Positions 22,529-29,293 of a DNA stretch of 64,000 bases are shown here, piece after piece. The notes below the pieces were generated by a model. That model saw only the letters and a program-made list of their open reading frames with translations, had not been told where the DNA came from and searched no databases. The position numbers were made by a program, and so were the translations under genes. Position 1 is the stretch's first letter. Each line of letters opens with the position of its first letter. The DNA is from Bacteroidota bacterium. GTDB lineage: Bacteria > Bacteroidota > Bacteroidia > B-17B0 > Aurantibacillaceae. The DNA is taken from contig JAFLBH010000002.1 in the NCBI GenBank assembly GCA_017303905.1, positions 62,001 through 126,000 on the forward strand, given 5' to 3'.

Positions 22529-22564
22529 AAAAAAGCTGCCTCCATCCCCAAAGGCAGCTTTTTT
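22529..22564. terminator. Terminator hairpin, proximal of two tandem
   Basis: AAAAGCTGCC (22531-22540) pairs with GGCAGCTTTT (22553-22562), with A/T tracts on both sides. It lies 110 bp after the stop of the PKD lipoprotein gene, read on the minus strand. Confidence 0.85.
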
Positions 22565-22674
22565 GTTGGTTGGTATCAGATTATTTATTTATGAATGGCC
22601 AACCGTATTTTACCATCATTACTAACCTATACGCCGGCAATTTTTGAAAGGTTGGGTGAAGATTAAAAAATATT

Positions 22675-23793
22675 TTATTTATATGCCACAGCTACAACAG
22701 CTTTACCTTTTTCTATTGTTAATGAGCCTGTTGCGCTAAATACCTTACAGCTAAACTCTAAGGTTAACTTCTTTGTTTTTTGTCCGTTACCATTGTTCTC
22801 ATAATTCTCAACTCCAATAATTTTAAAATAACTGTTTGCAGGTTGACCAAAATCATCAGAAGTATAAACATTACCTGCTGCATCGGTATATTTAATAATA
22901 ATATTAGAATAGCCTTTTGGATTTTGGATTGGGGTTACACCAACTATTAAATAATTGGTGGTGCAATCGAGTCCGTTTGGCGTTAAGTAATTAAGATGTG
23001 CAACCGCGGTATCATTTACGGCATCAATAACACGTAAACTTACAGGGTATCGTCCTTGCAATGCGTAGCTATGCGAAGGAATAGCCATATTGGATGTATT
23101 ACCATCACCGAAATTCCATAAAAAATTATAAGGCGGCACACCTAAAGTTGAATGCGTAAATGTAGCGGTAAGAGTAGAAGTAGAGCTGGCAGTTATGGAA
23201 GTACGACAATCAGCACCGGTATTTCCGAAACTTTGCATGTTACATACAGAGTTCGTACAACCTGCGGTATCCTGAACACTTAAGCAAACATTGTATTGTC
23301 CGGTTCTGAAAACATGGGATGTGTTAGGCATGGTAGAAGTAGCGCCATCCCCAAAGTTCCATAAGTAATTGGTAGAATATTTATTGAAGAGGGAGTAAAA
23401 TTGAACATTGTGTAACACCGGCATGGGATTACCCGCCATAAACGGATAAAATTTATACATGAAAGCCGAATCGGCACCGGATGTTCCATTATAAGCACTG
23501 ATGCGATGATCATTAATTTGTATCTCGATGCTGTTTGGACAAACACCACTGCAATTGTGCGATTTTAAATTGGCTTTAAATCCGTATAAGTTATTTACAT
23601 CTTGCTCATATGAAGAGTACATGTAATAATTATCAACGCCTGCTTTAAATTCAACAGGTACATTGTTTACTTGCGCAGAAAAATAAAACTGCGGGTCGTT
23701 GGTTTCGTTGTCGGTGGGTAATTCCTTTTTCTTACAGTTCGTTAATAGGGCGGGGCTTACTGCAATTAAAAGGAACAGGTGTTTTGGTTTCAT
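22675..23793 (-). CDS. PKD-domain lipoprotein
   Basis: A 372-residue protein with a lipoprotein signal peptide (LIAVSPALLTNC, lipidated Cys20). Two PKD domains follow, each with the diagnostic W-N-F-G-D-G motif: YLWNFGDGATSTMPNTSH (about 143-160) and FLWNFGDGNTSNMAIPSH (about 225-242). PKD repeats are Ig-like beta sandwiches used in adhesion or glycan binding on the cell surface. The C-terminal third is beta-rich with no recognised domain. It starts 9 bp after the end of the barrel protein gene, which is translationally coupled to an ECF sigma factor gene. The three form one operon, so this may be the surface-exposed part of that signalling unit. Confidence 0.85.
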   Translation of the reverse strand: MKPKHLFLLIAVSPALLTNCKKKELPTDNETNDPQFYFSAQVNNVPVEFKAGVDNYYMYSSYEQDVNNLYGFKANLKSHNCSGVCPNSIEIQINDHRISAYNGTSGADSAFMYKFYPFMAGNPMPVLHNVQFYSLFNKYSTNYLWNFGDGATSTMPNTSHVFRTGQYNVCLSVQDTAGCTNSVCNMQSFGNTGADCRTSITASSTSTLTATFTHSTLGVPPYNFLWNFGDGNTSNMAIPSHSYALQGRYPVSLRVIDAVNDTAVAHLNYLTPNGLDCTTNYLIVGVTPIQNPKGYSNIIIKYTDAAGNVYTSDDFGQPANSYFKIIGVENYENNGNGQKTKKLTLEFSCKVFSATGSLTIEKGKAVVAVAYK

Positions 23794-23802
23794 TATTCGT
23801 TG

Positions 23803-25410
23803 TTACTTTTTAAATAAATCGAGACATAGTGTAACTTTAACACCCATGGCTCTTTCGTTTGTATTGTTTTTAAAATGATCGTTTTTCTTAATATCGGTAA
23901 AGCCGTAAATAAACTCTGCATTCGCGCTTAAGCCTTTGTAAATACGGCGGCGGTAAAACACAGATGCCTGAACATCTAAACTGTTAAACCCTGTTACATA
24001 ACCGGTTTCTTTTTTAGTGCTTAAACGATTGCTCTCGTTCATTGGCTCTGCGTTATTGGTGCGGTATTTTTCAGTCTGACTATCGCTATTTAACAGGAAT
24101 CCGGTGTTTGCTCCAAAACCAATGGTATTGTTTTTACCTAAATCAACACCCAATTTAATTGGCACAGAAATGTAATGTATGCGAATGTATTTAATGGCCG
24201 TAACATCGCGCTGTACACCAAAATTATACTCAGTTGTACTAGCCGTGTAGGTACTGTTACTTAAATTGCCAATGCTGTTGTATTGTAAGCCTGCGGTTAA
24301 AGAAACTTTAGGACTGATATATTGCTGATAGTTGATACCTGCCACTGCATTAAAACCGTTAGCTTCCTGACTGCCATTTACATTCCAACCAAACAAATAA
24401 GTAGCACCAGCTTCCGCATATAAAAACTTCGGACGGATTTTTGGTTTTACTGAAGAAGGAAGATTTAGGTCATTCGCAGTTGACGTGCTATCTACTTTGG
24501 CCAATACCGGTGTTTGTGTATTGTTTGTATCGGCAATAGGAGAGCTCATTTCAATGACATCTTTTGTTACAACTGCCGCTAAGGAGTCGGTTACCTTCGA
24601 ATCGTTACCGGAAATGTTATTAGTTATTACAGCTGTTCCTTCCGATTTTAAATTGCCTTCACGGTTGCTGTTGATGCCTTTGTTTTCTGAATTTACAACG
24701 GTGTTGTTTTTATTTGTGGCACTTAAGTTACTGCCAAGAATAACAGGAATTTCAGTTTGCGTAGTGCTTTTTGATTTTTCAGATTTAGCAAGCTTAATGG
24801 TTTCAGAACTTTCCTTTCCGGCAGCTGTTCCGTTTGGTGAAGAAGAACCGGAACCGGGATTGGTATTGCTTGCTGGAGTGGATTGAGAGGTGGTTGAATT
24901 GCTGTTTTCTGAAGAAGAATTACTGTTAGTTTGAGTTTTATCAGAACTAGCCTCAGTGTGACTAACGTTAGACGAAGATTTACCGCCGATTGATTTTTTA
25001 GTCCCTGAAGTGTTATTATTGGTGGTTGTACGATTTGTGTGTTGATTATTATCGTCGTTGTTATTTAATTTATTTTCATTAACGTTTGCAGCAGTTTCAA
25101 CTTCAGATGTTGCAGGATTTACGGGTTGCATATCGGAAGGCTGAACAGATTGCTGATTCTTGCTAATATCATTTAACGCCAAAAGCGGTTGCTCGTTGTT
25201 TGAGCTGCCGCTTTGTGTGTAATACACTACACCAAGAGTTAAGATTAATGCTATCGATGAGAGGAAAAATATCCATTTAGGCCTGTTATTGCTACGCGAG
25301 GCATCAATCATGGCGCGGGCCTTTTCCCAGTTTTGTTCATCAAACGGAAACTCCGCATTATCGAGCTTCTGCTTTAGGTGTTGTTCGAATTCGTGTAAAT
25401 CCTTTTTCAT
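23803..25410 (-). CDS. Sigma-factor-linked protein with inner-membrane anchor and outer-membrane beta-barrel
   Basis: A 535-residue protein with an unusual layout. Residues 1-45 are hydrophilic and cytoplasm-like (PFDEQNWEKARAMIDASRS), followed by one membrane segment (46-64, WIFFLSSIALILTLGVVYY). Residues about 68-330 are a low-complexity Ser/Asn/Thr/Lys/Glu-rich linker. From about 330 there is a beta-barrel domain of the outer-membrane type (FLYAEAGATYLFGWNV; ISPKVSLTAGLQYNSIG; ending VKVTLCLDLFKK). Its ATG overlaps the stop of the sigma factor gene by 4 bp, the usual place of an anti-sigma factor, so the N-terminal segment may bind the sigma factor. One chain could reach from cytoplasm to outer membrane. 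That topology is an inference. Confidence 0.75.
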   Translation of the reverse strand: MKKDLHEFEQHLKQKLDNAEFPFDEQNWEKARAMIDASRSNNRPKWIFFLSSIALILTLGVVYYTQSGSSNNEQPLLALNDISKNQQSVQPSDMQPVNPATSEVETAANVNENKLNNNDDNNQHTNRTTTNNNTSGTKKSIGGKSSSNVSHTEASSDKTQTNSNSSSENSNSTTSQSTPASNTNPGSGSSSPNGTAAGKESSETIKLAKSEKSKSTTQTEIPVILGSNLSATNKNNTVVNSENKGINSNREGNLKSEGTAVITNNISGNDSKVTDSLAAVVTKDVIEMSSPIADTNNTQTPVLAKVDSTSTANDLNLPSSVKPKIRPKFLYAEAGATYLFGWNVNGSQEANGFNAVAGINYQQYISPKVSLTAGLQYNSIGNLSNSTYTASTTEYNFGVQRDVTAIKYIRIHYISVPIKLGVDLGKNNTIGFGANTGFLLNSDSQTEKYRTNNAEPMNESNRLSTKKETGYVTGFNSLDVQASVFYRRRIYKGLSANAEFIYGFTDIKKNDHFKNNTNERAMGVKVTLCLDLFKK

Positions 25411-25967
25411 AATTCTATTTTATACGGTGCAACAATGTTTTCGAGCATTTCTTTTAATTTGGTGCGTGCCGAGTTAAGGTGCCATTTAGAGGTCCCCTCT
25501 TCAATACTTAACATTTCGGCAATTTCTTTATGCGAATAGCCATCCACCACAAACAAGTTAAAAACCTGTTGTGCCATAGGCGGCAGTTTGGTAATTAATT
25601 CGTGGATTTTTGCTGTATTGATACGATCGAGAGCTGAATTTAACTCGGCATACTCGCTGTTATCATAATACTCCTCCACATAATCAATCACCTCACTTTG
25701 TTTTTTGTTTTTTCTGTACTCATCAATCAGCGTATTAATCATAATGCGTCTGATCCATGCCTTAAACGGAATTTCTTCCTTGTATTTATCGAGGTTATTC
25801 AGGATTTTAAGAAAGCCTACATTAAGGATTTCCTTTGCCAAATCCTGATTGCGTGTATAACGCACGCAAATACTCATTAAATAACTATAGGTTAGTTTGT
25901 ACAGTTCATATTCAGACCTTCTGTTTCGGCTAATACAATCCTTTATCAGTTGAGGCTGAATGTTCAT
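25407..25967 (-). CDS. ECF-type RNA polymerase sigma factor
   Basis: A 186-residue sigma-70 family protein with the two ECF domains. Region 2 is visible at about 20-85 (LMSICVRYTRNQDLAKEILN; PFKAWIRRIMINTLIDEYRK) and region 4 at about 125-180 (LPPMAQQVFNLFVVDGYSHK, then EIAEMLSIEEGTSKWHLNSA). It directs RNA polymerase to its own set of promoters. The gene overlaps the next by 4 bp (ATGA), so the two proteins are made together, as expected for a sigma factor and its regulator. A PKD lipoprotein gene follows in the same operon. The target promoters cannot be told from the window. Confidence 0.93.
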   Translation of the reverse strand: MNIQPQLIKDCISRNRRSEYELYKLTYSYLMSICVRYTRNQDLAKEILNVGFLKILNNLDKYKEEIPFKAWIRRIMINTLIDEYRKNKKQSEVIDYVEEYYDNSEYAELNSALDRINTAKIHELITKLPPMAQQVFNLFVVDGYSHKEIAEMLSIEEGTSKWHLNSARTKLKEMLENIVAPYKIEL

Positions 25968-26026
25968 TCCTTGAATTCAATTAAATAACTGTACGAGTAA
26001 TAACGCCAAAAGGTTGGGACGTATTA

Positions 26027-27928: not shown

Positions 27929-29293
27929 TTGAAGTTGAAATTCATACACGCTTTCGTCCTGATTCTAATCATTGCCTTTTTATCTTGTAAAAAGAAACAG
28001 AATACAACTTTAGGAACAGATGTTCAGCCTGAAATTGATGAACTGAATATTGAAATTTCAGACACATCCACTATTCAGGCTCATACGATTATTCATCAAA
28101 GATCACGTTCATTTCAGGATCAATTCAAATACCTTGGCTCTAACCAGGATCCCGTTTTTGGCCGCACTAATGCGAGTGTATATACCAATATTTCTTTACC
28201 AAATAACGTTTCAAATATTTCTTTTGGGGAAGATGCCGTTTTAGATTCGGCAGAGATTATTGTGGCGTTTACACAAAATTTCATTGGCGATAGCACAAAC
28301 GCTTTGTATTATCAGGTTCATCAGCTTACACAAACAATGAGCAAAGATTCATCGTACTATATGGATCAAAATTTAACGTATAATACTTTGCCTTTAGGAA
28401 GCGCGTGGCGTAGGATCAGTAAAACAGGAAGTTATTATTCAATTAAAATTCCGGTAGATGCCGCTTTTGCATCGGCCATGATCACCAACTCACAATATTT
28501 AATCGATAATGCTACTTTTCAATCTGTTTACAAAGGTTTTTACATTACCACAAAAAGCACCAACAATTTAAATCCAACTTCCAAACCGGGAGCTTTGTTG
28601 AAAATAGATTTGGATAATGGTATTTCGGGTATGTACGTTTATTATCACAACGGTTCTTCACCTGCCTCTAAAGAGCCTAAGCAATACCGTTTTCCTTTTA
28701 GTGGCAGTAATTCGTCTCGCTTCAATAACATCGAATACATTTATTCTTCCGGAGCAAACAGTTTATTGGTGCAACAAATTGCTGATAAAGATTCCGCAAA
28801 AGGAAAACAAAATTTATTTTTGAAAGGGACAGGCGGAACTAAAGTTGTTTATCGGTTACCGTACTTGAAAAATTACGCCGATTCTTGTCCCATTTCAGTG
28901 AACCGTGCCGAAGTTGTTTTAAAAGTAGACCAAAGTTTTTTAGCGGCCATTGGCACATACGAACCTCCTTCTTATCTTTCTTTGGTAGCACTTGATGCAT
29001 CCGGAAATGAAATTTATGTAAAAGATCAATATTACACTGCCGATTTAACCCGTTACGGTGGAGCATATAATCCGGTAGCTAAGGAATACGTTTTCAATAT
29101 CGCGCGACATGTTCAGGATATTATGAGTGGTAAATTGGAAAACCACGGATTTAATTTAGTGGTGGCAAATACCAGTTTACTTCAAGTGGCGCGTCGTGAT
29201 AATAAAGGCGAGCGTGTTGTTTTGGGCGGAATAAACAGTGCTTATAAACCAACTTTCAAACTACACTTCGTAAGATTGCCTTACGACAAATAA
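27929..29293 (+). CDS. DUF4270 family lipoprotein
   Basis: A 454-residue protein with a lipoprotein signal peptide (FVLILIIAFLSC, Cys20) and the DUF4270 pattern: LGTDVQPEIDELNIEI near the N-terminus, FGRTNASVYTNISLP, and VLGGINSAYKPTFKLHFVRL at the C-terminus. The family is confined to Bacteroidota and its function is unknown; members are expected at the outer membrane. No ATG is available, and translation starts at TTG (27929 or 27935). The asparagine synthase gene begins 3 bp after its stop, so the two are likely co-transcribed, which may point to a link with surface glycan or envelope assembly. Confidence 0.85.
   Translation: MKLKFIHAFVLILIIAFLSCKKKQNTTLGTDVQPEIDELNIEISDTSTIQAHTIIHQRSRSFQDQFKYLGSNQDPVFGRTNASVYTNISLPNNVSNISFGEDAVLDSAEIIVAFTQNFIGDSTNALYYQVHQLTQTMSKDSSYYMDQNLTYNTLPLGSAWRRISKTGSYYSIKIPVDAAFASAMITNSQYLIDNATFQSVYKGFYITTKSTNNLNPTSKPGALLKIDLDNGISGMYVYYHNGSSPASKEPKQYRFPFSGSNSSRFNNIEYIYSSGANSLLVQQIADKDSAKGKQNLFLKGTGGTKVVYRLPYLKNYADSCPISVNRAEVVLKVDQSFLAAIGTYEPPSYLSLVALDASGNEIYVKDQYYTADLTRYGGAYNPVAKEYVFNIARHVQDIMSGKLENHGFNLVVANTSLLQVARRDNKGERVVLGGINSAYKPTFKLHFVRLPYDK

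What the first reader, a model, noticed from the sequence alone, without database searches (positions are those of the whole stretch)
22675..25967. ECF sigma factor coupled to one protein that may span from cytoplasm to outer membrane
Seen: the sigma factor gene overlaps (ATGA) a 535-residue protein with a cytoplasmic-type N-terminus (1-45), one inner-membrane segment (46-64), a very long Ser/Asn/Thr/Lys linker (about 68-330) and an outer-membrane-type barrel (330-535). A PKD lipoprotein gene follows by 9 bp. Known: ECF sigma factors are usually paired with an anti-sigma factor, and in Bacteroidota often with outer-membrane receptors. Inferred: the anti-sigma and the outer-membrane sensor are fused into one envelope-spanning chain, with the PKD lipoprotein as a surface part.
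Basis: partly seen in the sequence, partly recalled or inferred. Interest (0 to 1): 0.6.

Follow-up and report, generated by a model that had tools for sequence, protein, structure and literature searches.

The report
Envelope-spanning anti-sigma with lipoprotein partner
This bacterium carries a stress-response switch whose single regulator protein appears to run from the cell interior to the outer membrane, a design already known from gut Bacteroides, but here it comes with a fixed lipoprotein partner, its own promoter type and probably a small regulatory RNA.

Summary
In detail: an ECF sigma gene, then a 535-residue protein (cytoplasmic two-helix N-terminus, one membrane helix, disordered linker of about 260 residues, OmpA-like barrel), then a PKD lipoprotein, in one operon. 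The fusion is not chance: 71 of 73 sigma-anchored loci with enough sequence keep it. The envelope-spanning anti-sigma is already known in Bacteroidota as the Dma family (PMC13088901; earlier PMC9308784). The N-terminus and barrel are homologous to a Bacteroidaceae-like set that contains a Dma2-type operon. So this is a Dma subfamily, not a new principle. What I did not find in print: (1) the PKD lipoprotein follows in 65 of 68 loci; (2) a fixed-spacing promoter, ACCCAAC(C/T)NTT-N13-CGTA, found in 11 of 11 operon-bearing genomes against 1 of 10 without a fused-protein match; (3) a second copy directly after the operon drives either a T9SS-secreted PKD protein or a terminated transcript of about 70-120 nt, a candidate sigma-dependent sRNA; in the window at 22624-22529, minus strand. 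Sigma binding, topology and RNA expression are untested.

The parts
25993..26017 (-). ECF-type promoter P1 of the operon (CCAACCTTTTGGCGTTATTACTCGT), just upstream of the sigma gene
   Evidence: AAC(C/T)-N16-CGT at fixed spacing upstream of the sigma gene in 50 of 79 sequences; shuffles mean 0.98, max 4; other spacings 0-6; position
25407..25967 (-). ECF sigma factor gene, 186 aa
   Evidence: Pfam Sigma70_r2 and Sigma70_r4_2, NCBIfam sigma70-ECF 2.5e-25
23803..25410 (-). Dma-type fused gene, 535 aa: anti-sigma-like N-terminus, membrane helix, linker, barrel
   Evidence: conserved fusion in 71 of 73 loci
25279..25410 (-). N-terminal two-helix motif, residues 1-44 (EFPFDEQNWEKA; W28 in at least 90% of 50 rows)
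   Evidence: alignments A1 and A4; homology to the Bacteroidaceae-like N-terminus, E 5.4e-6, 0 of 200 column shuffles reach the score
25210..25278 (-). inner-membrane helix, residues 45-67
   Evidence: helix 45-67 in the model; hydropathy peak at 47; 70 of 71 relatives have a hydrophobic segment, median start 47
24430..25209 (-). disordered Ser/Asn/Thr/Lys linker, residues 68-327
   Evidence: pLDDT 33-56 for most of it; family range 138-352 residues, median 204, n=70
23806..24429 (-). OmpA-like outer-membrane barrel, residues 328-535
   Evidence: pLDDT mostly 90-98; Foldseek OmpA E 2e-7; VIA Z 16.4 to NspA, 15.7 to the OmpA TM domain
22675..23793 (-). PKD lipoprotein, 372 aa, invariant Cys20
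   Evidence: PKD_4 x2; C20 invariant in 18 rows; directly follows the fused gene in 65 of 68 loci
22630..22657 (-). second copy of the promoter (P2), just after the PKD gene
   Evidence: genome-wide search: 3 strict hits in the 3.95-Mb genome, 0 for the control pattern;
22529..22624 (-). candidate sigma-dependent sRNA of about 95 nt, ending in a hairpin (22564-22529) with a T run; its first base is estimated
   Evidence: MFE -28.2 kcal/mol, z -3.19; nearly identical in sister genome G006

Best explanation
It is a Dma-type (dual membrane-spanning anti-sigma) signalling operon. The N-terminal two-helix domain of the fused protein holds the ECF sigma factor at the inner membrane. The disordered tether crosses the periplasm to an OmpA-like barrel in the outer membrane that acts as the sensor, probably together with the PKD lipoprotein. 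A disturbance of the outer membrane, or failure to insert or hold the barrel, leads to loss of the anti-sigma domain, most likely by proteolysis. The freed sigma factor reads ACCCAAC(C/T)NTT-N13-CGTA promoters and switches on its own operon, a second transcription unit directly after it (a short terminated RNA here and in some relatives, a T9SS-secreted PKD protein in others) and one or a few other genes. Shown by computation: architecture, conservation, homology to a Dma2-containing set, promoter and its specificity for operon-bearing genomes, terminated second unit in the sequence. Inferred: sigma binding, topology in the cell, the signal, proteolysis, RNA function.
For: Architecture. Fusion in 71 of 73 and PKD partner in 65 of 68 sigma-anchored loci. 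Barrel homology to Bacteroidaceae-like Dma proteins, hhalign probability 98.6, E 8.9e-16; N-terminus E 5.4e-6, 0 of 200 shuffles. One member of that set, L208, is a Dma2-type operon: it is followed by a DUF4943 lipoprotein (E 1.3e-21), as the Dma2 paper describes for BT_1557. In that paper loss of Dma2 strongly raises its sigma gene and neighbours and hypervesiculation needs the sigma factor; in P. vulgatus a similar anti-sigma with a barrel responds to an envelope toxin. Promoter: 50 of 79 upstream regions; strict pattern in 11 of 11 operon-bearing genomes, 0 control hits, against 1 of 10 genomes without a fused-protein match.
Against: No test of binding: the in-frame sigma/N-terminus chain gave pLDDT 83-92 for about residues 201-230, but the first N-terminal helix ran on from the last sigma helix (157-203), probably an artefact of the join, and no interface score was available. 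No expression data. 29 of 79 upstream regions lack the exact promoter pattern, Saprospiraceae-type loci above all. Three of 68 loci lack the PKD gene. Membership of ECF21 could not be tested. Some related loci keep anti-sigma and barrel as separate genes, so a single chain is not essential for this kind of system.
Confidence: 0.82

Rival explanations
1. The fused protein is cut in the linker as a matter of course, so the working parts are an ordinary inner-membrane anti-sigma factor and a free outer-membrane barrel made from one gene.
For: Related loci outside this subfamily encode a short membrane anti-sigma (about 240 aa) followed by a separate secreted protein, in 3 of 4 tested an OMP_b-brl_2 barrel above its Pfam cut-off (loci). 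The linker is low-complexity and exposed.
Against: The fusion is kept in 71 of 73 loci and no linker is shorter than 138 residues (n=70), as a tether that must cross the periplasm would need. No conserved cleavage motif was seen in the linker alignment.
Confidence: 0.15
2. The barrel gene is simply an outer-membrane protein with an odd N-terminus that acts as signal sequence; it has no anti-sigma function.
For: The only Pfam match of the window protein is a sub-threshold barrel family (Opacity, E 0.0046). No solved structure matches the N-terminus.
Against: The 45-residue N-terminus is better conserved than the linker and is shared with Dma-like proteins; it repeats in tandem in some relatives (3-4 profile stretches in L108, L111, L126); the gene sits next to the sigma gene throughout.
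Confidence: 0.05
3. The short transcript after the operon is not a regulatory RNA but only the operon's 3' end with an internal promoter, or encodes a tiny peptide (MMVKYGWPFINK in the window).
For: The reading frame is visible in the window and in G006. The same hairpin would also end the operon transcript. In the L068-type clade a gene starts 100-170 nt after the promoter, so a leader with an attenuator is possible.
Against: The promoter copy is on the operon strand in 19 of 66 loci and on the other strand in 0 of 66. Terminator stems covary in the L068 clade (4 pairs with changes on both sides in 6 sequences). In the window a terminator lies between it and the next gene. The tiny frame was not seen in the aligned type-B copies.
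Confidence: 0.4

Closest known systems
Dma2/Das2 of Bacteroides thetaiotaomicron (PMC13088901: abstract, introduction, three results sections, discussion, part of the references and passages read) and, by its citation, Dma1/Das1 (PNAS 2024, not held, not read)
   Same: Adjacent ECF sigma gene; N-terminal anti-sigma domain, one TM helix, long disordered tether, C-terminal barrel; three-gene operon whose third gene, in L208, looks like a lipoprotein; operon induced when the anti-sigma is lost.
   Different: Third gene there is DUF4943, here a PKD lipoprotein; Dma2 is said to be limited to Bt and close relatives, this subfamily is widespread outside Bacteroides; promoter type, second unit and candidate sRNA are not in the parts read; OMV phenotype unknown here.
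P. vulgatus M0N98_03760-61 sigma/anti-sigma pair induced by toxin BcpT (PMC9308784, passages read)
   Same: Anti-sigma factor predicted to span the periplasm with a beta-barrel in the outer membrane; responds to envelope stress.
   Different: No PKD lipoprotein in the passages read; regulon changes O-antigen length and NigD-type genes.
RpoE/RseA of E. coli with MicA and RybB sRNAs (recalled, no call)
   Same: Works like it if the sRNA is real: envelope-stress ECF sigma with its own small RNA.
   Different: RseA has no barrel and does not cross the periplasm as one chain; no sequence relation tested.
FecI/FecR/TonB-dependent transducer systems (recalled)
   Same: ECF sigma, membrane anti-sigma and an outer-membrane protein as sensor.
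   Different: Separate proteins and a TonB-dependent receptor; here one chain with a small OmpA-like barrel.

Membership tests
Dma (dual membrane-spanning anti-sigma) family | C-terminal beta-barrel of outer-membrane type | tested here: met
   Model 328-534; OmpA/NspA-like, Z about 16; profile homology to Bacteroidaceae-like Dma barrels, E 8.9e-16
Dma (dual membrane-spanning anti-sigma) family | one transmembrane helix after a short cytoplasmic N-terminus | tested here: met
   Helix 45-67; 70 of 71 relatives have a hydrophobic segment
Dma (dual membrane-spanning anti-sigma) family | long intrinsically disordered tether | tested here: met
   pLDDT 33-56 for most of it; 138-352 residues in 70 relatives
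Dma (dual membrane-spanning anti-sigma) family | N-terminal anti-sigma domain homologous to known members | tested here: met
   hhalign E 5.4e-6, 0 of 200 column shuffles, against a set containing L208, a Dma2-type operon identified by its DUF4943 neighbour
Dma (dual membrane-spanning anti-sigma) family | binds and inhibits the adjacent sigma factor | tested here: inconclusive
   Adjacency conserved; fused-chain model uninformative on the interface
Dma (dual membrane-spanning anti-sigma) family | cognate sigma belongs to group ECF21 | not testable with these tools
   No ECF-group library held; it is an ECF sigma
Dma (dual membrane-spanning anti-sigma) family | controls vesiculation | not testable with these tools
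   needs mutants
FecR-type transducer systems | separate anti-sigma and TonB-dependent receptor | tested here: not met
   One chain with a barrel of about 207 residues; no FecR or TonB-receptor Pfam match at E up to 1
zinc-finger (zf-HC2/RsiW-type) or RseA-type anti-sigma factors | recognisable anti-sigma Pfam or NCBIfam domain | tested here: not met
   No such match for the fused protein at E up to 1

The most novel reading that the evidence does not exclude
Probability: 0.3. Interest if true: 0.78.

Novelty: new variant of a known kind. Interest (0 to 1): 0.5.

Why it matters
It moves a signalling design known from gut Bacteroides to many other Bacteroidota: full-length PKD-lipoprotein matches at E 1e-53 or better, covering at least 350 of 373 positions, in 47 of 295 sampled genomes of the class, 16 family labels (my count from the listing). 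It supplies what the known Dma systems lack in the text I read: a clear promoter code, a tiny predicted regulon, a dedicated lipoprotein partner and a candidate small RNA. These make the signal and output of such systems directly testable.

Tried and rejected
Tested and set aside: a soluble periplasmic domain instead of a barrel (OmpA/NspA-type matches); a coincidental neighbour of the sigma gene; presence of the same architecture at the other sigma loci of this genome (only the window locus matched the N-terminus and barrel profiles among the 24 loci). The looser promoter pattern CCAACYNTT-N13-CGT is no better than its backwards control in G006 (8 against 9 hits; G000 8 against 3), and several of its hits lie inside genes; only the stricter form is used for the regulon. 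The Rfam scan of the sRNA region gave nothing at a gathering score. The phmmer search of the N-terminus against solved structures found none. The generic sigma-70 scan found no more sites than shuffles, and its terminator rule missed the 22564-22529 hairpin, which folding shows. The paired sigma/N-terminus fold was not informative. VIA rows for the second model are only sigma folds over 1-182.

On print: searches for ECF sigma with anti-sigma, PKD domain and lipoprotein (none), for dual membrane-spanning anti-sigma, for ECF21, for Dma1/Das1/NigD and for sigma-dependent small RNA in this phylum did not show the PKD partner, the promoter or the RNA (listings and starts of abstracts seen, except for the papers named as read). 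The founding Dma1 paper is not held, so its content on distribution is unknown to me. A CGT -10 box for an ECF sigma is already reported in F. psychrophilum (PMC9723704, passages).
Full report
OBSERVATION. On the minus strand: an ECF sigma gene (25407-25967), a 535-residue protein (23803-25410) overlapping it by 4 bases, and a PKD lipoprotein (22675-23793) 9 bases further on. Pfam confirms sigma regions 2 and 4 and two PKD stretches; the fused protein has only a sub-threshold barrel match. The structure model, made with an alignment of 50 rows, shows helices 3-17 and 25-40, a membrane helix 45-67, a disordered stretch to about 320 and a confident barrel 328-534. The closest solved folds include the OmpA and NspA transmembrane domains (Foldseek OmpA E 2e-7; VIA Z 16.4 for NspA, 15.7 for the OmpA domain).

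CONSERVATION. 17 of 41 genomes searched (the own genome among them) have a match to the fused protein; 18 operons (17 from relatives and the window) were aligned. To avoid choosing by the fusion, I then anchored on the sigma alignment and fetched the 80 best loci from a collection of 84,980 species. Of 73 with at least 1500 bases after the sigma gene, 71 have N-terminus and barrel in one adjacent ORF; the two exceptions are a filter miss and a run of undetermined bases. Of 68 with at least 3200 bases, 65 have the PKD lipoprotein next; L096, L098 and L114 do not. Ten of the 80 loci lie on contigs that also gave rows to the profile. Linkers run from 138 to 352 residues, never short (n=70). The N-terminal motif occurs in tandem in some relatives (several profile stretches in L108, L111 and L126; two copies visible in the aligned L010 row).

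WHAT IT IS. The architecture is that of the Dma family: N-terminal anti-sigma domain, TM helix, disordered tether, C-terminal barrel, next to an ECF sigma gene (PMC13088901, passages and sections). I tested the kinship. In a family that I take to be Bacteroidaceae, 19 of 41 genomes matched a 64-residue N-terminal query. Of the ORFs extracted from its 21 loci I aligned 19 proteins; L201, L209 and two further reading frames of L192 were left out. One of them, L208, is followed by a DUF4943 lipoprotein-like gene (E 1.3e-21), as the Dma2 operon is said to be. Against this set the barrels align with probability 98.6, E 8.9e-16. The N-termini align with E 5.4e-6; 0 of 200 column-shuffled controls reach the score and segments of the sigma factor do not match. 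W28 is invariant there and nearly so here. An earlier paper describes a similar anti-sigma with a barrel in P. vulgatus, induced by an envelope-acting toxin (PMC9308784, passages).

SPLIT RELATIVES. In other genomes the closest sigma factors are followed by a short membrane protein of about 240 residues with the same kind of N-terminus and then a separate secreted protein; 3 of 4 tested of these carry the OMP_b-brl_2 barrel domain above its cut-off. This fits a gene fusion or fission of one functional pair.

PROMOTER. Upstream of the sigma gene, 50 of 79 sequences hold AAC(C/T)-N16-CGT; shuffles give mean 0.98 and maximum 4, and nine other spacings give 0-6. The pattern was first read off the window. 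The consensus extends to ACCCAAC(C/T)TTT-N13-CGTA. The strict form was searched in whole genomes: 28 hits in 11 of 11 operon-bearing genomes (1-5 each), no control hits; 1 hit in 10 genomes without a fused-protein match, 8 of them same-family and 2 same-class. The window's own P1 departs from the strict form by one base and is found with the looser form.

SECOND UNIT. In the window a second copy lies at 22630-22657, right after the PKD gene. It is followed by about 95 nt and a strong hairpin with a T run (MFE -28.2, z -3.19), before glycyl-tRNA synthetase. The sister genome has nearly the same stretch, with one more gene between. Within 250 nt after a complete PKD gene, 19 of 66 loci have the motif on the operon strand and 0 on the other. 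In 10 of these 19 (L050, L051, L052, L068, L070, L071, L074, L075, L076, L112) a hairpin with a T run starts about 35-85 nt after the motif; in L053, L055, L057, L091 and L100 a gene for a likely secreted protein starts within 100 nt; L078, L087 and L106 had no hairpin and no ORF listed, though L078 does have such a gene; L058 has a hairpin only at 129 nt. In the L068-type clade the terminator stem covaries (4 pairs with changes on both sides among 6 sequences). Five genes after the operon that I tested, L049, L052, L057, L064 and L078, all carry the T9SS type A sorting domain above its cut-off. Other strict hits in the genus lie before a small secreted 184-residue protein (G000, G006, and its homologue in G002), a 65-residue protein and a PKD protein.

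HOW IT LIKELY WORKS. Shown: architecture, conservation, kinship, promoter code and its association with the operon, existence of a terminated second unit in sequence. Inferred from Dma2 and from ECF systems in general: the N-terminus holds the sigma factor; a change at the outer membrane frees it; it raises its own operon and the second unit. Inferred further: since the sensor is itself a barrel that must be inserted, the system may read outer-membrane assembly directly, and the RNA may act on surface-protein mRNAs, as MicA and RybB do under RpoE (recalled). The PKD lipoprotein is a fixed partner of unknown place.

RESULTS AGAINST. The fold of sigma plus N-terminus as one chain, possible where the two genes are in frame, gave a continuous helix across the join and no interface score, so binding is untested. 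29 of 79 upstream regions lack the exact promoter. The loose pattern is near background genome-wide. One genome without a fused-protein match has a strict hit. The founding Dma1 paper could not be read.

VERDICT. The lipoprotein partner, promoter, regulon and candidate sRNA are additions that I did not find in print.

Noticed in passing
window 22529-22657, minus strand: Second sigma-type promoter and short terminated transcript after the operon; it also holds a tiny frame MMVKYGWPFINK, intact in the sister genome.
   Followed up: partly
L068, L070, L071, L074, L075, L076, after the PKD gene: A different short transcript with a covarying terminator stem and a conserved TTTGTGTT loop, plus conserved AGTTCTGTGTTT blocks.
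   Followed up: partly
L049 8000-9412: The sister genome has a T9SS-secreted PKD protein between the lipoprotein gene and the short transcript; the window lacks it.
   Followed up: partly
L168, L171, L185, L187: Split version of the system: sigma, short membrane anti-sigma, separate secreted barrel or secreted protein.
   Followed up: partly
L108, L111, L126, L010: Tandem copies of the N-terminal sigma-binding-type motif in the fused protein.
   Followed up: no
L230 (G000:C1:429047), L251, L252: Strict promoter copy before a small secreted protein of 184-186 residues, possibly a small barrel, in three genomes of the genus; no Pfam match for the one tested.
   Followed up: partly
L247 (G000:C4:357472) and L229: Strict promoter copy before a 65-residue protein in the window's genome and its sister.
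   Followed up: no
window 27929-29293, plus strand: DUF4270 gene (E 2.6e-38) with a lipoprotein-like start near the operon.
   Followed up: no
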